Shown: positions 3,058-43,530 of the stretch, in pieces | Position numbering within the stretch: position 1 is the stretch's first letter | Layout: every line of letters begins with the position of its first letter | Source of the DNA: Bacteroidia bacterium | GTDB taxonomy: Bacteria; Bacteroidota; Bacteroidia; CAILMK01; JBBDIG01 | Length of the DNA stretch: 45,196 nt | Assembly (NCBI GenBank): GCA_040880525.1 | Contig: JBBDIG010000011.1 | Coordinates: 1 to 45,196, forward strand | Direction: 5' to 3' | Program-made: the position numbers and the translations under genes | The notes under the pieces: generated by a model | Told to the model about the DNA's origin: nothing | Databases searched by the model: none | Seen by the model: only the letters and a program-made list of their open reading frames with translations

Positions 3058-3094
3058 CTAAATATTTTTAAGGTTTGCAGGCAGTTGTGCAACT

Positions 3095-3110
3095 CTGGGC
3101 TTCTGCCCGG
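3095..3110. repeat. Short hairpin repeat, copy 1 (CTGGGC-TTCT-GCCCGG)
   Basis: A six-base-pair stem with a four-base loop. A near-identical copy in the same orientation lies at 30489-30504 (loop TTCC). Both copies are in intergenic DNA just upstream of a decayed, GC-rich secreted-protein fragment. Confidence 0.5.
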
Positions 3111-3192
3111 AAGTATAATATTCAGAAACATACTGAGAATCACATATTGTAATTCTGTGTAATTGCGATAACATTCCGGGCTACAAACATGA

Positions 3193-29832: not shown

Positions 29833-30088
29833 CGGGTTGCATCTTTAGCCGGTTATTTTTCAGAATTTACAAATAAAAGCATTTATTTTTATTCATGACC
29901 TTTCAACTCCTGAAACCCTTGCCGGGCTTATGTTCTGACTAATTTTACCATTCCAAATGTCCATTAGGCCCTTATTGATAAAGCCAGTGCTGAGAAACCG
30001 CTTCAAGCTCAGCCGCTTTCAGATGGAAGGGAAGACGCTGGAGAAGGAACTGGTGGGGGATCGGCTGCTGTAGTCGTATTAAGCAGAT
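29833..30088. other. Gene-poor stretch with one unrecognised 38-codon frame
   Basis: AT-rich spacer upstream of the cytochrome gene. The only open frame of note is plus-strand 29957-30073, ATG to TAG, beginning MSIRPLLIKPVLRNRF and ending KELVGDRLL. It is basic and helical but I recognise no family, and it has no visible promoter. It could be a fragment of a lost gene. Nothing else stands out. Confidence 0.3.
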
Positions 30089-30112
30089 AAAGGCACGAAG
30101 TCATCAACAGGT
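30089..30112 (+). repeat. 24-base direct repeat, copy 1
   Basis: AAAGGCACGA-AGTCATCAACAGGT. A second copy at 31733-31756 is identical at 22 of 24 positions and in the same orientation, and a shorter match lies at 31688-31704. The first copy abuts the point where the neighbouring pseudogene ceases to look coding. Confidence 0.55.
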
Positions 30113-30479: not shown

Positions 30480-30488
30480 AGTGTACCT

Positions 30489-30504
30489 CTGGGCTTCCGC
30501 CCGG
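30489..30504. repeat. Short hairpin repeat, copy 2 (CTGGGC-TTCC-GCCCGG)
   Basis: Second copy of the hairpin at 3095-3110; the shared context extends to CTCTGGGCTTCYGCCCGGA. As at the first locus it lies upstream of a decayed, GC-rich secreted-protein fragment. Confidence 0.5.
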
Positions 30505-30517
30505 AGTAGTTTGGGTG

Positions 30518-31658: not shown

Positions 31659-31732
31659 ATCCAACAATCCAGATCAAGTTAACCGTAAAAGGCACGACGG
31701 CATCCTCGCGCAAGTAGGGGAGGAGATCAGTA

Positions 31733-31756
31733 AAAGGCACGAGGGCATCAACAGGT
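31733..31756 (+). repeat. 24-base direct repeat, copy 2
   Basis: Differs from copy 1 (30089-30112) at two positions. It ends exactly at the stop codon of the PIN-partner gene on the minus strand. A partial third match precedes it at 31688-31704. Confidence 0.55.
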
Positions 31757-35770: not shown

Positions 35771-35862
35771 GAAGCCCTGACAATCTTCACTCCTTCAAAA
35801 TAAGTATTTTACAAGTGTGACATCAATAATTGTTAATACGCACCATAAAAGAGATACCTCAG

Positions 35863-35940
35863 CCTTCGTGCCTTTGTGTCTAAAATATTTAAAATAAAAC
35901 TTAGCACCACTTTGTGCCTTAGCGCCTTTGTGTCTAAGCA
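35863..35940 (+). repeat. Octamer-type intergenic repeat, copy A
   Basis: Two blocks of CTTTGTG-like octamers. The first reads CCTTCGTGCCTTTGTGTC (35863-35880). The second (35901-35940) reads CTTTGTGC, CTTAGCGC, CTTTGTGT and CTAAGC in succession, a period of eight. It lies between the stop of the secreted-protein gene and the convergent stop of the outer-membrane barrel gene. Related copies occur at 40516-40550 (inverted) and 42145-42180. Confidence 0.7.
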
Positions 35941-35943
35941 AAT

Positions 35944-37194
35944 TCAAAAACTATATTTAAACCTCAAAAACACACTATTACCAATATTAGCAAACTCCTC
36001 TACTTCTAAAAAATAAGTCTGTGCAAAAAAAGCAAACTCCCAGTTATTGGCAATTACCCAATTTACAGAGGGCATCATAAGTACGCTATTTACGTAAGGA
36101 GAATAGAGTGCTACCAGGCTTCCGGAAATAATGGGAGAAAATGGTTTAGATAAACTTAACAGAAAAGAATATTTTGTAGGAAATAAATTTTTCGCAGAAA
36201 TAGGTTGTGAAAATAAATTGTCAGCCCGCCCTAATTCTTTGTTTATTCCTGATGAATTAAATAAGAAAACTGTTGTAGCAAATATTCCATTACCAAAAAC
36301 ATAGTCGCCCGAAACAGAAACGCTCAGCACCCCTGTAGTATCCTGCCAATTGTCCTGCGGATGAAAGTAAGTGGCCTCACCTTTAAAGCCCGCACCTTTA
36401 AAATTGCCGGCCCAGCCCGCGCCTGTGGCCACATCTTCATTCCACCAGCCGCCCAGCACCTGGAAATCATATTGCCACTTATTGAATTTATACATAGCAG
36501 CGCCTATCCAGCTATTTTCATCCCGGCCCGGTTGCACGGCTACGTCCATGGAAGAGTAATTCGCGAAATACTTCTGCACCCGCACTGCGTCAGTACCCGG
36601 CCTTTCTTCATAATCAAAATCGGTGAGGGAATACACATTGAAGAGATCGTTGGCATTCCAGAATAAATTTACGCCCCAATTGATGCGCTGGCGGCCCACA
36701 CGCGCCTCCCATTTCCCATAGTTCCCGTGCAGCCAGGCGCGGTCTATTTGCGTGAGCATCAGCAGCGAGCGCTTGTCAATGAGCCGCCATGACATGTCTA
36801 CCAACCCATCGTCCTGGTCCTGGAATGTCGCAAAGGCCGTGTTGAGGTTGATGCTCTCGCCAAAGAATACACGGTTGCGGACCTCCATGCCCACCGTAAT
36901 ATGACTGTCAGGATATAAACGAAAATTCAGGCGGTTGTGCAGCAGATTGTCAGTGGTCATCATATCGAGGTTGCGGAAACCCACGATCTGCATGTCCTTC
37001 ACGTAGCCCCTCACTGTAAAACGGTCCATTTTGGGAATACTGTCCGCAGCAGCCGGAGTAGTTCCTTCGCTCTCAAGCGATTTAGAATTTACAGAGGACT
37101 GTGCCATCAACTCGGTTCCCAATATTATTTGCAAGACAAAAAGCAGCAATCCGGTTACGAAAGAAATTTTGGTCCGTAATATTTCTTTTATCAT
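35944..37194 (-). CDS. Outer-membrane barrel protein (DUF1302-like) of the ABC transport cluster
   Basis: About 416 residues from the ATG at 37194, which gives a proper signal peptide (EILRTKISFVTGLLLFVLQI, cleavage near LMAQ); an upstream ATG at 37248 only adds sequence ahead of it. After a Ser/Thr-rich linker come many alternating strands: DRFTVRGYVKDMQIV, NRLNFRLYPDSHITVGMEV, DRAWLHGNYGKWEARVGRQ, then RINWGVNLFWNANDLF and DYEERPGTDAVRV, which recall the DUF1302 porin-like family. The protein ends in a strand with a terminal phenylalanine (FLRFKYSF), the outer-membrane barrel signal. It follows the ABC ATPase gene on the same strand after a gap of 183 bases of AT-rich DNA, so it may be coregulated rather than on one message. 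Confidence 0.75.
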   Translation of the reverse strand: MIKEILRTKISFVTGLLLFVLQIILGTELMAQSSVNSKSLESEGTTPAAADSIPKMDRFTVRGYVKDMQIVGFRNLDMMTTDNLLHNRLNFRLYPDSHITVGMEVRNRVFFGESINLNTAFATFQDQDDGLVDMSWRLIDKRSLLMLTQIDRAWLHGNYGKWEARVGRQRINWGVNLFWNANDLFNVYSLTDFDYEERPGTDAVRVQKYFANYSSMDVAVQPGRDENSWIGAAMYKFNKWQYDFQVLGGWWNEDVATGAGWAGNFKGAGFKGEATYFHPQDNWQDTTGVLSVSVSGDYVFGNGIFATTVFLFNSSGINKELGRADNLFSQPISAKNLFPTKYSFLLSLSKPFSPIISGSLVALYSPYVNSVLMMPSVNWVIANNWEFAFFAQTYFLEVEEFANIGNSVFLRFKYSF

Positions 37195-37377
37195 TACTGC
37201 TAATTCAAATATTAAGGTAAACATTCTGCCATGAATTAATGCAGTCACAAAACCTTCTTTTTTGCAGCGGTAACATTGAATATTATTTTTTTATATCTTA
37301 ATTTTTAAATAAAAACCCGGGAAAGTTTATCCTATATTAATATTTAAATTTCCACAGGTTTATAATTTCAATTTAAA

Positions 37378-38064
37378 TTATGAATTCCCCGCTTCATCCG
37401 ATACCACCTTGCCATCCTCAATGGTGATGACACGCCTGGCACGGTCAATCACGCGCTGATCATGGGTGGAAAATATAAAGGTGGTACCTTCTTCATGATT
37501 AAGTTGCGCCATGAGGTCAAGCAGGTTGGCCGTAGAAGCCGAATCAAGGTTGGCCGTAGGTTCGTCAGCCAGGATAAATGCCGGTTTTGAGGCCAGTGCC
37601 CGCGCTACTGCCACGCGCTGTTGCTGGCCTCCTGAAAGCTGTGATGGCCGTTTGTCAAGCTTATCCGCCAGGCCCACTTCGTTCAGCAGTGCATCAACCC
37701 GCTGTTGCCGTTCTTTTTTTGACCGTCCCTGCAGCAGCATAATGAACTCCGTATTCTCCCGTGCCGTCAGCACCGGTATGAGGTTATAACTTTGAAAAAC
37801 GAACCCGATGTGTTTCATACGGAAATCAATAAGCTGGTTCTCTGAGAGCTGCGAAAGATCCGTATCGCTAATGCGGATGCTGCCGGCAGTAGGCCTGTCC
37901 AGCCCACCGATCATATTGAGAAGAGTGGTTTTTCCCGAACCCGAAGGGCCTTTTACCGCGACAAATTCCCCTTCTTCTATTTTCAAGTCAATACCATTAA
38001 CCGCATGGACGGGCACGGCACCTTGATATGTTTTTCGGAGATTCACTGTTTCTACTACTGTCAT
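37378..38064 (-). CDS. ABC transporter ATPase (LolD/MacB type)
   Basis: 228 residues, a complete ATP-binding subunit. Walker A is GPSGSGKTTLLN, Q-loop FVFQSYNLIPVL, signature LSGGQQQRVAVARAL, Walker B FILADEPTANLD and switch histidine FSTHDQ. The sequence family is the LolD/MacB/FtsE group that works with FtsX-like permeases on lipoprotein release, drug efflux or cell-wall tasks. It starts four bases after the upstream permease ends, on the same strand, so the two subunits are cotranscribed. The cargo is not visible from sequence; the LolA-like gene in the same cluster suggests a lipid-linked substrate. Confidence 0.92.
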   Translation of the reverse strand: MTVVETVNLRKTYQGAVPVHAVNGIDLKIEEGEFVAVKGPSGSGKTTLLNMIGGLDRPTAGSIRISDTDLSQLSENQLIDFRMKHIGFVFQSYNLIPVLTARENTEFIMLLQGRSKKERQQRVDALLNEVGLADKLDKRPSQLSGGQQQRVAVARALASKPAFILADEPTANLDSASTANLLDLMAQLNHEEGTTFIFSTHDQRVIDRARRVITIEDGKVVSDEAGNS

Positions 38065-38068
38065 TGCA

Positions 38069-39286
38069 TTATATTTTTCTTATTGCTTCGGAAGGATTGA
38101 GTTTCAAAGCTTTGATGGCTGGATAAATGGCCGCGAGCACCGCCATGATCACCACCATTGCTGATACGATGAGATAAGTCCTGGCTTCGAGTTGCGGATG
38201 AATCTGGGCGGCAAATCCGAAGTCGCTGAGATTTTCGCTGTAGGAACCGAGGCTGAATCCATGTTTTCCCGTATACCAGATGGTGGCCCAGCCCAGGAGA
38301 AATCCTATCGGCCCGCCCGTAAAGGCCAGGAACAGGGTTTCCAGCAGGATCATTTTGAAAACGCGCTGTTTGTTCATGCCTATTGCCATGAGCATTCCGA
38401 GTTCCCGTACCCGCTCCAGCACCGCCATGAGCATGGTATTCAGAATGCTGAAAAGCAGCGCCAACAGAATAATTCCCATAAAGACATAGGTATAAATATC
38501 CATTGAATCAATCATCAACCGCATGATGGGCTGGAGATCGAGCCAGGAAAGCACTTCAAAGTCAGGGTAAAGTTGCTGGTAGCGGGCCGCTTCCGGTTCC
38601 GCATGTTCATTCTGGTACAGGAGCACGGCAATTTCCTGTACGCCACTTTCCGTACCCAGCAGTTCCTGCAATCTCTCGCGCATCACGAAGACGTGCATTT
38701 CATCGAACATTCCATTGCCTGTCTTATAAATGCCGCTTACCTTAAAGGCTCCTGCTGCAAAATTCTGATCCAGGTTTTGCATGGTAAGCACCACCTTTGA
38801 TCCGAGCCTGAGCTTGTATTTGTCTGCCAGCTTTTCGCTCACCAGGATGGAATTGGTGTATTCGCCAGGCAAGTAGTTTCCTTCCCTGATATGCCGGTCG
38901 AGCCGCGTAGCCTGCGATTCGCTGTCCGGATCAATGCCCACCACTTTTGCCCCTCCTGTATGAGAGGGCGATGCCATCATAGCCATAGAGATGGCGCGGG
39001 CTGTCACCGCCTTTACTTTTTCATTTTGCTGCAAATGCCTTACGATGCTGTCGCTGCGTGGAATGTAAAACTGCGGTTGCACGTTATCCCGGAAGTCAGG
39101 GTGATGGAACTGAAAATGCGAAAGTTCGTTGCCAATGATCATTTCGATGCGCTGATTGGTGAGGCCGTACATAAATGCCAGCACCATAAGCCCTGCCCAT
39201 AGACCGAGGGCCACGGCTATGATTCCAACCAGGCTGCGCAATTTCTGGCGCCACACATTTCTCCATGCAATTTTTATCAGCATCAT
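38069..39286 (-). CDS. FtsX/MacB-type ABC permease (second)
   Basis: 405 residues. One N-terminal helix (IAVALGLWAGLMVLAFMYG) is preceded by the basic IAWRNVWRQKLRSLVGI motif of this family. A periplasmic MacB-PCD-like domain of about 220 residues follows (SMAMMASPSHTGGAKVVGI, SILVSEKLADKYKL). The C-terminal FtsX region has three helices with IILLALLFSILNTMLMAVLE, VRELGMLMAIGMNKQRVF and the end LKLNPSEAIRKI. Two adjacent ATG codons make the start ambiguous; the first overlaps the stop of the other permease as ATGA. Together with its sister permease it would form the membrane pair served by the LolD-like ATPase. Confidence 0.9.
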   Translation of the reverse strand: MMLIKIAWRNVWRQKLRSLVGIIAVALGLWAGLMVLAFMYGLTNQRIEMIIGNELSHFQFHHPDFRDNVQPQFYIPRSDSIVRHLQQNEKVKAVTARAISMAMMASPSHTGGAKVVGIDPDSESQATRLDRHIREGNYLPGEYTNSILVSEKLADKYKLRLGSKVVLTMQNLDQNFAAGAFKVSGIYKTGNGMFDEMHVFVMRERLQELLGTESGVQEIAVLLYQNEHAEPEAARYQQLYPDFEVLSWLDLQPIMRLMIDSMDIYTYVFMGIILLALLFSILNTMLMAVLERVRELGMLMAIGMNKQRVFKMILLETLFLAFTGGPIGFLLGWATIWYTGKHGFSLGSYSENLSDFGFAAQIHPQLEARTYLIVSAMVVIMAVLAAIYPAIKALKLNPSEAIRKI

Positions 39287-40500
39287 TTTCTCATTGCTTC
39301 AATAGCGTTCAGACGCAGTAATCTCAAAAAAGGATAAATTGAAATAACGAAGGCAATAATGGCTACCACCACTGCCTGCTGGATGAAAAGGCCGGGCGTT
39401 ACGGCAGTTTGCAGCACCGGCTCTAATCCGTAGTCTGAGTACATTTTTGCCATTTCTTCTCCAAAAGAAACCGGGTTCATATTAAAATATAGGGCAATTG
39501 GGAAGACGGCCAACATCCCTGCAATGGCTCCGATAATGACCATGACCAGGATTTCAATAAATACCATCAGCGCCAGTTGAATTCTTTTCATTCCTATGGC
39601 CACCAGCATTCCGAATTCGTGCTCGCGCTCGGCCATCATCATAAGTACGGTTCCAAAAATTCCAAAGGAGATGACTACATAAAGAATGAACATAAAGACA
39701 TATTGCTCCTGCTCCTCTGATTGGACCATTCGCACCATATCCGGCACAAGTTCCTTCCAGGGCATTACCTCATATTTTGCGGTATCCAGACTGGCGCGCA
39801 ACTCCTCTGCGATTTGTTCTGCTTCATCGGGGTCATCAATAAAAATAACGGCAGCCGTGATTTGCGGCCCTGTAGCAAAGAAATACTGCGCCTCCTCCAT
39901 AGGAAGGAAAACCACCTGCCTGCTCATTTCAGGAGACCCGATCTTTACAATTCCTTTTATGGGATACAGGCCGCTGGAGGTCATTCCCCGGTAACCCTGC
40001 CCGAAAAGCACCAAGGTATCGCCAGCCTTCAGTTTCAGGAATTCGGCAAGCCCCGCGCCTACCAGAACCGCCTTGTCTCCCGGTTCCAGATACTCTCCTT
40101 CAATTACTCTTTCGCTGAGGCCGGTGTTCTGCTCTTCGTTCTCAGGGTCAGTTCCGGTTACCATTGCAGCACGGGTAAGCTCACCAGACGATGCCAGTGA
40201 AAATCCTTCTATCCGGCTTGTGTAGCCAGTGATTCCTTCGTGTTCATTCAGGAGTTGGCGCAGGGAGTCGGTAAATTCAAAACTGAGATCAAGTGACGGT
40301 TCATCCCAATAACCTTTACTGTGGATCTGGATATAACCGGTGAATTTGCCAACGGTATTTTCGACCATAAGATCGAGGACACCTTCTTTAAAGCTTGCAA
40401 GCATGGAAGAGAGCATCACGGCCAGAAACACAGATGCCATGGTGATGAAGGTGCGCTGCTTGCTGCGCCAGAGGTTTCGCCAGGCCAGTTTCAGGAGCAT
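39283..40500 (-). CDS. FtsX/MacB-type ABC permease (first)
   Basis: About 405 residues from the ATG at 40500 (MLLKLAWRNLWRSKQRTF), the standard start for this family. The frame extends to 40539, but those 13 extra residues (CLSAFVSKYFDP) are simply the translated octamer repeat at 40516-40550, so they are rejected. A first helix is followed by a periplasmic MacB-PCD-like domain (SGELTRAAMVTGTDPE, KAVLVGAGLAEFLKLKAGDT) and a C-terminal FtsX core (FGIFGTVLMMMAEREHEFGM, LVAIGMKRIQLALMVFIEI, LNAIEAMRK end). Its stop overlaps the next permease start. It is the first permease gene after the inserted ATPase module. Confidence 0.9.
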   Translation of the reverse strand: MLLKLAWRNLWRSKQRTFITMASVFLAVMLSSMLASFKEGVLDLMVENTVGKFTGYIQIHSKGYWDEPSLDLSFEFTDSLRQLLNEHEGITGYTSRIEGFSLASSGELTRAAMVTGTDPENEEQNTGLSERVIEGEYLEPGDKAVLVGAGLAEFLKLKAGDTLVLFGQGYRGMTSSGLYPIKGIVKIGSPEMSRQVVFLPMEEAQYFFATGPQITAAVIFIDDPDEAEQIAEELRASLDTAKYEVMPWKELVPDMVRMVQSEEQEQYVFMFILYVVISFGIFGTVLMMMAEREHEFGMLVAIGMKRIQLALMVFIEILVMVIIGAIAGMLAVFPIALYFNMNPVSFGEEMAKMYSDYGLEPVLQTAVTPGLFIQQAVVVAIIAFVISIYPFLRLLRLNAIEAMRK

Positions 40501-40808
40501 GGGATCGAAGTATTTAGACACAAAGGCGCTAAGACACAAAGGGGCACAAATAAATGATTAGTTAAGCCTCGAAGCTTTCTATCATCCTGAGCGATAGCGA
40601 AGGAACTGGGCAAGTTGCGGTATATTCTAAGCGAGTTGGCTTCCACTCTAGTAATAGAATCTTTGCTCGTACCGTCATCCTCGTTCATTTCAGCCATATG
40701 CCCTATGGGACTGAGGGGTGTTGCGGAGTGATTTGTTTGGATTTTACACGTGAATGCCAGGGATAAGGCAAAAAAAGTTGCAAAATAGATGTAGCGCTTG
40801 CGGTTCAT
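40491..40808 (-). CDS. Doubtful small secreted ORF running into repeats
   Basis: 105 codons beginning two bases after the DUF4143 ATPase stop. The start looks like a signal peptide (MNRKRYIYFATFFALSLAF, then TCKIQTN). After about residue 75 the reading is translated repeat: SSFAIAQDD from the CCTGAGCGATAGCGAAGG element and FVPLCVLAPLCL from the octamer repeat, ending inside the permease gene. Either a small gene lost its end by repeat insertion, or the frame is chance. I recognise no family. Confidence 0.25.
   Translation of the reverse strand: MNRKRYIYFATFFALSLAFTCKIQTNHSATPLSPIGHMAEMNEDDGTSKDSITRVEANSLRIYRNLPSSFAIAQDDRKLRGLTNHLFVPLCVLAPLCLNTSIPCS
40516..40550 (-). repeat. Octamer-type intergenic repeat, copy B (inverted)
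   Basis: Minus-strand reading TTTGTGCCCCTTTGTGTC then TTAGCGCCTTTGTGTCT. It is the inverse orientation of copies A and C. It sits between the DUF4143 module and the first permease gene and creates a false N-terminal extension of that permease. Confidence 0.7.
40582..40607. repeat. TCATCCTGAGCGATAGCGAA-type dispersed sequence
   Basis: TCATCCTGAGCGATAGCGAA then GGAACT. It resembles a sequence I remember as scattered in Bacteroidota intergenic DNA. Only one copy is visible in this window, so the repeat status rests on memory rather than on internal evidence. Confidence 0.4.
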
Positions 40809-40809
40809 T

Positions 40810-42057
40810 TTATCCCTGTTTTGTTCCTCCAGCCACGCTCAATATTTCAATTGAATTGGCATCGGGATTTTGCCAGCATAATTTCTTTAAAGGGAAATTC
40901 TCATAGGTCTCAGCGAATTTCTTCTGGCCTGAAGATAAACTGGTTTCTCCATCCCATTTCACCTCCCAAGCCATCCCTTTTTCGCGATTATTTTCAATTA
41001 CAAAATCCACTTCGTATTGGTCGGCCGTTCGCCAGTGATGCAACTGATCTGTACTGTAGCTGTCCCACAGCAGGCGAAAGACATAGTTCTCTAGCACCTC
41101 TCCCTTGTCCTGACGCAGGGACGGCCTCCTAAAGTCGTTGATCAGGAAATTCCTTAGCCCGCTGTCAATAAAATAGGCTTTGGGCATTTTGGTGAGTTCC
41201 TTCCTGAAGTTTCGAAAAAACGGTGAGATAGTCTCGATGATGAACGATTTACGGGCGACATACATCATCTCCTCCGCTTTTTTATTGTTGATCTTCAGGG
41301 ATTTGGAGATGGAATTCAGGTTCGTCTGCTTTCCCGTTTCGCCTGCCAGCAATCTGAGGAACTGGGCAAATTTCAGATCATCCGTTAAGCCTGAGTCCAG
41401 CAGGTCTTTCTTGATGATGCTAGTTCCTATGCCCTGCAATACCATCTGCTTTTCCTTTTCATCCGTGGCCAGCACCACCTCTGGATAGCCGCCATAGGTC
41501 AAGTATTGCTCCAGCAGGTTTTTCAGCTTCGGTTCTTGCAACGAACGGTATTGCGGGTTCTGGGCCAGTTTGTCCAGTTCATCCATCAGGGCATCATTTC
41601 CGGAAAAGTGCAGGAATTCCGTAAAGTTGAGCGTGCCGGACTGCACCAGCCTTTTGCGGCCCATCATTGAATCGCCAAACTTCCGGTCTATGTAAAAAGA
41701 ACTGCTGCCTGTAGCAATGATCTTCAGGCGGTCGTGATATTCATCGTAGAGGAACTTGAGCAGGTTGGAGGGATCAGCCGCATATTGTACCTCGTCCACC
41801 AGCAGGAAAAGCTTTTCGCCTTCCGGCAGCCGGAAGAAATCGGTGTAGTTCAGCAGGTGTTCAGGATGCTTGTTCACCTCCTGCAGCACCAGCGGGTTTT
41901 CCAGGTTGATGTACGCCACAGCTTTCCCTTCGGCCTTCAGATACTGGTTCAGTTGCGTCAGGGCAGTCGTCTTGCCCGTTTGCCGAGGCCCAACCAGAAT
42001 GATGAAATGCTTGGTTTCGAGCCCCTCCTTCAACTTTCTTACATACCATCTCTCCAT
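40810..42057 (-). CDS. AAA_14/DUF4143 ATP-binding protein
   Basis: 415 residues, full length for the family. The N-terminal ATPase has Walker A GPRQTGKTTAL, YINLENP, Walker B KLFLLVDEVQ and the sensor segment IIATGSSSF, with the MMGRKRLVQSGTLNFTEFL motif typical of these proteins. A winged-helix-like middle (LNSISKSLKINNKKAEEMMY) leads to the C-terminal DUF4143 domain, which contains EVDFVIENNREKGMAWEVKW, a PD-(D/E)XK nuclease-like core. Function is unresolved for the family, and members are very often found in mobile or accessory DNA. It sits inside an ABC transport operon to which it does not belong, and has its own promoter and operator candidates upstream. Confidence 0.92.
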   Translation of the reverse strand: MERWYVRKLKEGLETKHFIILVGPRQTGKTTALTQLNQYLKAEGKAVAYINLENPLVLQEVNKHPEHLLNYTDFFRLPEGEKLFLLVDEVQYAADPSNLLKFLYDEYHDRLKIIATGSSSFYIDRKFGDSMMGRKRLVQSGTLNFTEFLHFSGNDALMDELDKLAQNPQYRSLQEPKLKNLLEQYLTYGGYPEVVLATDEKEKQMVLQGIGTSIIKKDLLDSGLTDDLKFAQFLRLLAGETGKQTNLNSISKSLKINNKKAEEMMYVARKSFIIETISPFFRNFRKELTKMPKAYFIDSGLRNFLINDFRRPSLRQDKGEVLENYVFRLLWDSYSTDQLHHWRTADQYEVDFVIENNREKGMAWEVKWDGETSLSSGQKKFAETYENFPLKKLCWQNPDANSIEILSVAGGTKQG

Positions 42058-42087
42058 GGCAAGCAGGATATTTTATTCGGATTAGAG

Positions 42088-42095
42088 CAAAAATA
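42088..42095 (-). promoter_or_regulatory. Putative -7 element TATTTTTG for the DUF4143 ATPase
   Basis: Minus-strand TATTTTTG fits TAnnTTTG, about 30 bases upstream of the ATG at 42057. It overlaps the left edge of the palindrome at 42089-42107, so a protein bound there would block the promoter. Confidence 0.4.
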
Positions 42096-42107
42096 TCGGA
42101 TATTTTT
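42089..42107. promoter_or_regulatory. Perfect 19-base palindrome, operator candidate 1
   Basis: AAAAATATCGGATATTTTT: two 9-base arms around a central G, perfectly symmetrical. It shares the core ATCGGAT with the second palindrome, whose centre is 32 bases away, about three helical turns. Confidence 0.55.
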
Positions 42108-42123
42108 CACCTTTTCACATAAC

Positions 42124-42136
42124 ATTATCGGATAAT
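42124..42136. promoter_or_regulatory. Perfect 13-base palindrome, operator candidate 2
   Basis: ATTATCGGATAAT: two 6-base arms around a central G. Same ATCGGAT core as candidate 1 and the same helical face by spacing. Both lie upstream of the DUF4143 ATPase start only. Confidence 0.5.
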
Positions 42137-42144
42137 CACCAAAG

Positions 42145-42180
42145 ACTTAGTGCATCGTAGTGTCCTTTTGCCTTTGTGTC
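42145..42180 (+). repeat. Octamer-type intergenic repeat, copy C
   Basis: Reads ACTTAGTGCATCGTAGTG then TCCTTTTGCCTTTGTGTC. It is more degenerate than copies A and B. It lies directly between the DUF4143 operator region and the LolA-like gene stop, in inverted orientation to copy B. The two together bracket the ATPase module. Confidence 0.6.
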
Positions 42181-42186
42181 AATAAA

Positions 42187-42939
42187 TCACTTCACCCTTT
42201 TCATATTCTGAACAGTAAAAAACTCGTCCTCAATGGGCCGGTCAAACTCTGCTGATTTCATGATCATCACTGTTTTTTGTCCGGGTTTATCAGCAGGAAT
42301 CAACTCGGTTCTGGTGGGGATAAGCCGGCCATCCATTTCCTTCAGGTCGCTCATCAGCATGGTATTTACCAACTCACCATCTTCATCATACATTTCGCTT
42401 TTAAGCTGGATATAGTCCGTTTTATCAATGTATACGATCACTTTTCCCCAAACCACCGCGGCTTTGGGTTTGGGCGTCATTTCAATTTTCCAGGTATCGC
42501 GGCCCGCTATGATCTGACTGCCGATAATCTTATGGGTATAATCATTTACCACGGATGCCTCGCGCACAAGATCATCATTGGTAAAGTCCGTTCCCATCCA
42601 GCTTTGGCCCATCATGCTGGGTGGCAGCTTAATGTTACGCTCTATATTGGGCATCCAGTTCCAGACTTCTTTGTCTCTCTTCAGGAAAGCGCTACCTGCC
42701 TCCCGTGCCGGGGCGGTAATGAGGATGAGGCTGTAATCCTCTCCTTTTGTCCAGCTTTTCATTTCCATGTCCCGCGTCCAGTTTGTCCGTACAATCTGTA
42801 TGGTCATTTCAGATTTCATGGTTTTAGTGCCCCTGGCTCTTTCATCGGCCTTGCGCACAATGTCCGTTGCGGATTCTGTCTGGGCCATGCCGAAGGTGAT
42901 CCCGCTAAAGAGCATCATCAATACTATCAATTTTTTCAT
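42187..42939 (-). CDS. LolA-like outer-membrane lipoprotein-sorting protein
   Basis: 250 residues. Signal peptide (MKKLIVLMMLFSGITFGMA, then QTESATD) and a periplasmic beta-barrel-like domain with motifs typical of the lipoprotein-sorting family: SEMTIQIVRTNWTRDMEMKS, RDKEVWNWMPNIERNIKLPP, MGQSWMGTDFTNDDLVRE and WKIEMTPKPKAAVVWGKVIV. Family members share the LolA/LolB fold that carries a lipid-modified or lipophilic cargo across the periplasm. It starts with an ATGA overlap to the broken TetR gene upstream and, apart from the inserted ATPase module, leads the permease genes. I infer that it is the soluble carrier of this ABC system. Confidence 0.9.
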   Translation of the reverse strand: MKKLIVLMMLFSGITFGMAQTESATDIVRKADERARGTKTMKSEMTIQIVRTNWTRDMEMKSWTKGEDYSLILITAPAREAGSAFLKRDKEVWNWMPNIERNIKLPPSMMGQSWMGTDFTNDDLVREASVVNDYTHKIIGSQIIAGRDTWKIEMTPKPKAAVVWGKVIVYIDKTDYIQLKSEMYDEDGELVNTMLMSDLKEMDGRLIPTRTELIPADKPGQKTVMIMKSAEFDRPIEDEFFTVQNMKRVK

Positions 42940-43517
42940 CGTGGTACGAATTGGTCAATAATCATTTGTTTCACTTGTGCCATTGGAAAATTGTCAGGGT
43001 CAAACATCAGGTGCATTTGCACACCATCCAGCACTGCCGAAAAATATCGGGTTATGGTAACCGGGTCTGCGTGGCCTTTTTCGGCAAAATACCGTTCGAG
43101 TACCTTCTGGTAAGTCGCAACCCTCGTTTTCATTTTTTCAATGAGCAATGGCGCCACATCCGGCTGAAATACCAATGCACTATATAGCCGCCACCGCTTT
43201 GGCTGCGCTACCACCACATCCAGGCTGAAGCTGATCCAGTCTTTAAGTCGTTGATCTGTAAACTGCTCATTTTCATTGATGGGAAAAAGCAGTCTACCTC
43301 GTCAAACATTCCGTTCACCAATTGCAGCAGCAAATCCTCCTTCCCCGTAAAGTAATTATACATCAGCCCTTTAGAAACTCCCGCTTCTTTTGCTATGCTG
43401 CTTACAGGAGTTTCTGTGGTAACCTTTCTCGGCAAAAAGTTTCAGCGCTGCTTCCATGATCGCCTTTTTACGCTTCAGACGTATGCTTTCGGATTATTCC
43501 GGTTTTCTGGGTGCCAT
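42936..43517 (-). pseudogene. TetR/AcrR-family regulator broken by one stop and two frameshifts
   Basis: Reassembling frames from the ATG at 43517 gives a normal TetR protein of about 190 residues: MAPRKPE, then SESIRLKRKKAIMEAALKLF, AEKGYHR, then TPVSSIAKEAGVSKGLMYNY (helix-turn-helix) and, in the third frame, WRLYSALVFQPDVAPLLIEK to FVPR. Three lesions break it: TAA at codon 8 (43494-43496), an extra base in the run near 43411-43413, and a lost base in the run near 43284-43288. Any one would stop translation of the full protein. The end overlaps the LolA-like start as ATGA, so it was the first gene of that operon. Sequencing errors in two homopolymer runs are possible, but the stop is not in a run. 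Confidence 0.85.
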
Positions 43518-43530
43518 GCTTTTGATTTAT

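What the first reader, a model, noticed from the sequence alone, without database searches (positions are those of the whole stretch)
40516..42180. DUF4143 ATPase module inserted in the transport operon, bracketed by inverted octamer repeats
The ATPase and the doubtful small ORF separate the LolA-like gene from its permeases. Copies B and C of the octamer repeat lie at the two edges in opposite orientation, and the module has its own promoter and operator candidates. This looks like a cassette that entered a working operon.
Basis: partly seen in the sequence, partly recalled or inferred. Interest (0 to 1): 0.55.

Follow-up and report, generated by a model that had tools for sequence, protein, structure and literature searches.

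The report
Defence-like ATPase gene inserted into transporter operon
A bacterial gene resembling an anti-virus defence enzyme has landed between two genes that normally touch, at a spot where related bacteria carry other small genes, several of them framed by mirror-image DNA repeats that differ by gene family, which hints at unrecognised kinds of repeat-linked mobile gene.

Summary
The insertion is real. In 131 other loci with the same lolA-permease pair, none has a DUF4143 ATPase between the two genes; in 94 of 132 they lie within 50 nt. The ATPase (40810-42057) is an AAA_14 + DUF4143 protein matching PADLOC's defence candidate PDC-S01 and brings a conserved operator. The small ORF is probably not a gene.

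The bracketing octamers are weaker evidence. B and C are related (p about 3.5e-4), but B pairs better with A, which encloses native genes. Such arrays are dispersed (28 matches in this genome, 0 in the control); 0 of 36 DUF4143 genes have them in both near flanks.

The wider result is more interesting. The same junction holds S23 genes in 7 of 132 loci and GxxExxY in 1. In 21 genomes S23 (29/50), GxxExxY (35/50) and small DUF559 genes (12/17) lie between inverted repeats, against 0/104 control genes, with different repeat words per family. One relative carries five such genes at five junctions of this operon. The window's arrays are of the GxxExxY type. How these elements move is unknown; the RAYT/REPIN parallel is inference.

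The parts
42187..42939 (-). LolA-like outer-membrane lipoprotein-sorting protein, gene upstream of the insertion
   Evidence: Pfam LolA_like E 2.9e-58; orthologs in relatives
42147..42180 (-). Octamer array C, degenerate copy, 6 nt after the lolA stop codon
42124..42136 (.). Operator-like palindrome ATTATCSGATAAT
42089..42107 (.). Operator-like palindrome AAAAATATCSGATATTTTT; its core recurs upstream of three 43-45% identical ATPases
40810..42057 (-). AAA_14 + DUF4143 ATPase, matches PADLOC PDC-S01; G28 K29 T30, D88 E89 and E349/D351/E365/K367 invariant among nine aligned relatives
40491..40808 (-). Doubtful small ORF; 3' part overlaps a CATCCTGAGCGATAGCGAAGGA-type motif (40582-40609), array B and the permease start; probably not a gene
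40514..40550 (+). Octamer array B (CACAAAGG CGCTAAGA CACAAAGG), of the type that flanks GxxExxY genes in relatives
39283..40500 (-). FtsX/MacB-type permease 1, gene downstream of the insertion
   Evidence: ATG at 40500 read
38069..39286 (-). FtsX/MacB-type permease 2
37378..38064 (-). ABC transporter ATP-binding protein
35944..37248 (-). Last gene of the operon (no Pfam match; similar gene at this place in several relatives)
35862..35939 (-). Array A, a direct double array just downstream of the operon; better inverted partner of B (31 nt, 94%) than C is

Best explanation
A PDC-S01-type gene (AAA_14 ATPase fused to DUF4143), together with its own operator, was inserted between lolA and the first permease of a LolA/ABC operon whose genes usually abut at that point. 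It lies in the operon's direction, so the downstream genes can still be transcribed. The junction is a recurrent landing place: in other lineages it holds S23 or GxxExxY genes, several of them with demonstrable inverted repeats. The octamer arrays B and C belong to a dispersed repeat family whose usual partner gene is GxxExxY, not DUF4143. Either the ATPase took the place of the usual cargo inside such an element, or arrays settled in the new intergenic spaces later. Likely function: the ATPase is a single-gene phage-defence or other nucleic-acid-acting protein that keeps itself repressed through the WTATCCGATAW operator, perhaps with its own winged-helix-like segment between the two domains (recalled fold, not tested). 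Insertion, recurrence and operator conservation are shown; defence, self-repression and the route of entry are inferred.
For: 0 of 131 other lolA-permease loci carry a DUF4143 gene at this junction; 94 of 132 have a gap of 50 nt or less. Other cargo at the junction: S23 in 7 loci, GxxExxY in 1. ATPase hits PDC-S01 at E 2.3e-87. Motif ATCSGAT upstream in 4 of 4 members of the ATPase's 43-45% identity group, against 3 of about 61 other DUF4143 upstream regions and 2 of 104 controls (the motif was chosen after seeing the window; Fisher p about 1e-4 with a conservative 4/61). Arrays dispersed: 28 matches against 0 control in the own genome.
Against: No genome of the same genus or family was among the relatives drawn, so the empty site of the closest lineage is unseen. 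The ATPase's GC content (0.486) is like that of its neighbours (0.47-0.51), so there is no sign of a recent foreign origin. Operator repression and defence are untested. The count covers only loci with a lolA-permease pair; 9 of 141 lolA loci had no permease found behind them and were left out.
Confidence: 0.72

Rival explanations
1. The whole stretch 40514-42180 moved as one octamer-array-bounded cassette, the same kind of element that usually carries GxxExxY, here with an ATPase as cargo.
For: B and C lie at the two edges, opposite in orientation, and are related (p 3.5e-4; extended-flank score 19, reached by 1 of 104 control genes). The architecture equals that of GxxExxY genes (35 of 50 with score >= 18).
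Against: B pairs better with A (94% over 31 nt) and A-B encloses native genes. 0 of 36 DUF4143 genes in 21 genomes have octamer arrays in both 180-nt flanks (the window's own B lies beyond that flank). C is degenerate.
Confidence: 0.33
2. Arrays B and C are independent intergenic repeats that settled in the two new intergenic spaces after the ATPase arrived.
For: 28 array matches in the own genome; in 16 own-genome regions fetched around them no S23, GxxExxY, DUF559 or GIY-YIG gene was found by profile. A lies at the end of the same operon. In L057 inverted tandem arrays lie around two ordinary permeases of this operon (scores 39 and 42).
Against: Two arrays at exactly the edges of one foreign gene, in opposite orientation, need a coincidence; there are only about 28 array matches per 3.8 Mb, though degenerate copies like C are not counted in that figure.
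Confidence: 0.45
3. The ATPase belongs to the transport operon functionally and has been recruited to it.
For: Same strand, inside the operon.
Against: Absent from this junction in 131 of 131 other loci; own conserved operator; DUF4143 genes elsewhere show no fixed strand relation to their neighbours (++ 11, +- 9, -+ 6, -- 5 of 31 scorable).
Confidence: 0.05

Closest known systems
PDC-S01 (PADLOC phage-defence candidate, single gene)
   Same: Near full-length profile match, E 2.3e-87. [quoted passage not shown]
   Different: Here inside a conserved envelope-transport operon; no defence neighbours were sought.
23S rRNA intervening sequence (IVS) with S23 ORF
   Same: S23 ORF in an element with terminal inverted repeats that form an RNA stem (PMC4990558, abstract start and passages). 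The S23 genes seen here have a similar layout.
   Different: Here the genes lie between protein genes, not in rRNA; RNase III excision is untested; the window's cargo is not S23.
RAYT / REPIN (recalled; titles and abstract starts seen in the listing)
   Same: A small protein gene flanked by inverted copies of a short repeat that is also dispersed alone.
   Different: Partner proteins are GxxExxY, S23 and DUF559, not HUH (TnpA_REP) endonucleases; genome-wide dispersal was counted only for the octamer family.

Membership tests
PDC-S01 / AAA_14-DUF4143 ATPases | AAA_14 and DUF4143 domains above curated cut-offs | tested here: met
   84.3 bits against cut-off 27 and 124.9 against 28.1; PDC-S01 E 2.3e-87
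PDC-S01 / AAA_14-DUF4143 ATPases | Intact Walker A/B and PD-(D/E)XK-like acidic/lysine residues | tested here: met
   G28 K29 T30, D88 E89, E349 D351 E365 K367 invariant in nine sequences; assigning them to these motifs is inference
PDC-S01 / AAA_14-DUF4143 ATPases | Protects cells against phage | not testable with these tools
   needs an experiment
Octamer-array element of the GxxExxY type | Inverted octamer arrays of CxCxAAG words directly flanking the cargo | tested here: inconclusive
   B and C present and related, but C degenerate, B lies 259 nt past the ATPase stop, and B pairs better with A
Octamer-array element of the GxxExxY type | GxxExxY (PF13366) cargo | tested here: not met
   No GxxExxY in the insert; the two own-genome copies lie on contigs C28 and C32
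23S IVS / S23 element | S23 ORF inside 23S rRNA, excised by RNase III | tested here: not met
   Cargo is not S23; no Rfam match at gathering score in the window; excision untested
Insertion sequence / composite transposon | Transposase gene and target-site duplication | tested here: inconclusive
   No transposase domain in the two ORFs of the insert; duplication not testable without a close empty site
RAYT/REPIN | HUH (TnpA_REP/Y1) endonuclease flanked by REPs | tested here: not met
   No such domain in the two ORFs of the insert

The most novel reading that the evidence does not exclude
In these genomes and their class-level relatives several small protein families, GxxExxY (PD-(D/E)XK), S23 (four-helix bundle) and small DUF559 proteins, and perhaps small GIY-YIG ones, are each the cognate protein of their own family of hairpin repeats. 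They move or maintain them much as RAYTs do with REPINs, insert between co-directional genes of operons, and at times carry or are replaced by other cargo such as the PDC-S01 ATPase of this window.
Probability: 0.4. Interest if true: 0.85.

Novelty: new variant of a known kind. Interest (0 to 1): 0.66.

Why it matters
Abundant short intergenic repeats in these genomes have no assigned origin that I found in my searches. A specific pairing between each repeat type and a small nuclease-like or RNA/DNA-binding protein would give every repeat family a candidate agent that can be tested, offer poorly characterised families (S23, GxxExxY, DUF559) a shared role, and extend the 23S IVS puzzle to ordinary operons. 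For the window itself, it shows a defence-candidate gene entering a conserved envelope-transport operon without removing any gene of it.

Tried and rejected
The small ORF as a remnant of an ancestral operon gene: first suspected because five relatives have a gap of 430-490 nt there; rejected when those gaps proved to hold S23 and GxxExxY genes and no relative of the ORF was found in the 338 loci then held.

A general rule that DUF4143 genes sit between inverted repeats: rejected. Score >= 18 in 2 of 36 with 180-nt flanks, 4 of 36, the window included, with 450-nt right flanks, and 3 of 29 in a second set that overlaps the first in part. Those apart from the window look like long palindromes at the two ends, perhaps terminators or another element, not octamer arrays.

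GIY-YIG as a full member of the repeat-bounded set: weak. 5 of 25 and 3 of 16 at score >= 18, some of them terminator-like hairpins.

A strict same-strand rule: 14 of 15 other cargo genes in this operon are co-directional (p 0.001), but one S23 fragment (L101) is antisense, and control genes also mostly follow a co-directional gene (40 of 48 scorable).

Inverted flank arrays as proof of a moving unit: rejected as proof. 9 of the 21 high-scoring ORFs in the lolA loci are ordinary genes, and in L057 two permeases lie between long inverted tandem arrays.

A copy count for the CATCCTGAGCGATAGCGAAGGA motif: only the copy in the small ORF plus one poor match in 215 kb of own-genome sequence, so its dispersal in this genome is not shown.

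Close relatives of the ATPase at E <= 1e-50: none in the 394 other phylum genomes searched. At E <= 1e-28 the closest are 43-45% identical.

Full report
What was claimed and what is there. The window (contig C11 of a 3.8-Mb genome, 60 contigs) holds an operon on the minus strand: TetR (broken frames), LolA-like 42187-42939, ATPase 40810-42057, small ORF 40491-40808, permeases 39283-40500 and 38069-39286, ABC protein 37378-38064 and a last gene 35944-37248. Octamer arrays lie at A 35862-35939, B 40514-40550 and C 42147-42180. B and C are opposite in orientation and really related: their score of 16 was reached by 0.035% of 20,000 Markov nulls and by none of about 4,000 window pieces. But A and B are a better inverted pair (31 nt, 94%) than B and C (34 nt, 74%), and A-B encloses native genes. 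Bracketing alone therefore does not define a unit.

The insertion. LolA orthologs came from 60 genomes (own included; 18 with a match), 80 named loci and a class search (70 of 395 genomes, own included). After removing identical ones, 141 lolA loci remained. In 132, window included, a permease follows; 9 without one were set aside. The gap from lolA stop to permease start, estimated from the tblastn match, is 50 nt or less in 94 of 132, with an overlap of 4 nt in 10 and of 1 nt in 20; 12 of 132 exceed 400 nt. The abutting state is the common one and the ATPase is an addition.

Other occupants of the same junction. The gaps of 95 nt and more were read one by one. S23 genes (PF05635) sit there in seven loci: L040, L044, L047, L050, L156, L159 (with an in-frame stop) and L101 (a fragment on the opposite strand); a GxxExxY gene (PF13366) sits there in L049 (Pfam scan of three of them; session profiles for all). 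Flank inverted repeats of score 18 or more were scored for L044, L047, L049, L050 and L156; inverted short arrays were read by eye for L040, L101 and L159. Cargo-less inverted arrays occupy it in L130 and L065; they fold at -82.1 and -35.9 kcal/mol, z -17.6 and -5.8. Insertions without evident repeats also occur there: a VIT1-like gene (L071) and an RsgA-like GTPase (L162, L169; names by eye). Counting all junctions, 10 of 132 loci have cargo inside the operon, 16 genes in all, the window included. Of the 15 outside the window, 14 run with the operon (p 0.001). Many loci are cut short, so junctions beyond the first are under-counted. In genome G020 one operon has S23, S23, S23, GxxExxY and DUF559, one at each of the five junctions from lolA to the last gene. 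In a tree of S23 proteins those from the lolA junction fall in at least three separate places (G004; G046 with Fodinibius; a cluster with G020, G132, G056 and G097), so there were several arrivals (FastTree, support values not examined).

A rule for the cargo genes. In 21 genomes (own plus 20 relatives) I scored inverted similarity between the two flanks of the best-ranked genes of each family. First set, score 18 or more: S23 17 of 30, GxxExxY 21 of 30, DUF4143 2 of 36 (own-genome loci included), other ORFs of the same loci 0 of 104. Small DUF559 10 of 15, long DUF559 and fragments 0 of 7, small GIY-YIG 5 of 25, long 0 of 1; 8 of 30 DUF559 and 4 of 30 GIY loci dropped out because a flank was too short. 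Shuffled pairings within a family reach 18 in 0.4-6.6%. A second set, taken in rank order while skipping hits with internal stops, open frames over about 200 aa, contig ends or already held, gave S23 12 of 20, GxxExxY 14 of 20, DUF559 2 of 2 and GIY-YIG 3 of 16, two of 18 GIY loci being too short. Without choosing families, 21 of 1223 ORFs in the lolA loci reach 18; 12 of these are S23 (7), GxxExxY (3), DUF559 (1) and GIY-YIG (1), and 9 are ordinary genes. Two of the nine, permeases in L057, lie between long inverted tandem arrays, so such arrays also border ordinary genes.

Each family has its own words. Both flanks carry CxCxAAG octamers in GxxExxY 10 of 30 and S23 0 of 30; TTAGG/GTT-type words in S23 12 of 30 and GxxExxY 1 of 30; CCCCTnGGGG hairpins in DUF559 11 of 15 and 0 of 60 for the other two; among controls 0, 5 and 0 of 104. 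For GIY-YIG the CTGAnC hairpin is in both flanks in 2 of 25 and in one or both in 10 of 25 (controls 1 and 5 of 104). I wrote the patterns after seeing the first set. On the second set, unchanged: octamers 8 of 20 GxxExxY and 0 of 20 S23 (p 0.003); TTAGG type 5 of 20 S23 and 0 of 20 GxxExxY (p 0.047); CCCCTnGGGG 2 of 2 DUF559; CTGAnC in both flanks 0 of 16 GIY-YIG, one or both 1 of 16, so no support there. The window's arrays are of the GxxExxY kind. The array pattern has 28 matches in the own genome and 0 for the reversed control, and occurs in 26 of 60 genomes, in several of them as close inverted pairs (capped list, read by eye). In the own genome 16 regions around arrays were read: the arrays are mostly between genes, mostly without an inverted mate, and no S23, GxxExxY, DUF559 or GIY-YIG gene lies in these regions; one region, on C36, holds a DUF4143 gene about 3 kb from its array. 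So in this genome the arrays are not beside their presumed partner genes.

The ATPase. AAA_14 and DUF4143 pass their cut-offs, PDC-S01 matches at E 2.3e-87, and the catalytic-looking residues are invariant in nine relatives. [quoted passage not shown] The three closest relatives (43-45%; L310-L312) lie elsewhere but share the TATCSGATA-like site 40-61 nt before the start; the window has it at 44 and 76. Of 66 upstream regions (one duplicate of the window's own counted; some overlap between the two sets) 8 hold ATCSGAT, among them all four of this group; controls 2 of 104. The motif was picked from the window first. So the gene probably came with its operator. DUF4143 genes elsewhere show no orientation rule.

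Mechanism. Shown: a later insertion in a recurrent junction, in the operon's direction, with a conserved upstream site and with repeats of a dispersed family at both edges. Inferred: the ATPase is a repressed defence-type protein; the arrays either delivered it in place of GxxExxY or came later. I lean slightly to 'came later', because no other DUF4143 gene examined lies between such arrays and because A-B outmatches B-C.

Known or new. 23S IVS elements with S23 ORFs and terminal inverted repeats are known (PMC4990558, abstract start and passages). I found no paper that links S23, GxxExxY or DUF559 genes in operons to dispersed repeats: searches, all in open PMC papers only (titles and abstract starts of the listings seen, lists capped). 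'GxxExxY' occurs in 2 papers of that library. RAYT/REPIN is recalled as the nearest principle.

Limits. Many of the genomes are fragmented or metagenome-assembled. Relatives were drawn by the tool, not at random, and the best-ranked family hits were used. No close empty site exists in the data seen. Flank scores depend on start-codon choice. Pairing with a word family does not show that the protein acts on the repeat.

Noticed in passing
42936-43518: The TetR-type gene upstream of lolA is in broken frames (one in-frame stop and frame changes); pseudogene or assembly error not decided.
   Followed up: partly
L047 9134-15768: Genome G020 carries five cargo genes (S23, S23, S23, GxxExxY, DUF559) at five successive junctions of the same operon.
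   Followed up: partly
L263, L279, L282, L325, L327, L334: DUF4143 genes with long similar palindromes at both ends, a different layout from the octamer arrays.
   Followed up: no
L357, L363, L343, L364, L349, L457: Small DUF559 genes lie between inverted CCCCTnGGGG hairpin repeats; 12 of 17 in all score 18 or more.
   Followed up: yes
L057 6771-9472: Two ordinary permeases of the same operon lie between long inverted tandem arrays of AAACCCTC-like words.
   Followed up: partly
30084-30112, 31685-31756; 3087-3111 and 30481-30505: Two further short repeats in the window (AAAGGCACGA..CATC type and CTCTGGGCTTCNGCCCGGA type).
   Followed up: no
L071; L162; L169: A VIT1-like gene and an RsgA-like GTPase also sit between lolA and the permease, without evident flanking repeats (names by eye).
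   Followed up: no
L002 (own genome C42): A paralogous DUF4143 gene has three ATCCGAWAWTA-like sites upstream, similar to the window operator.
   Followed up: no
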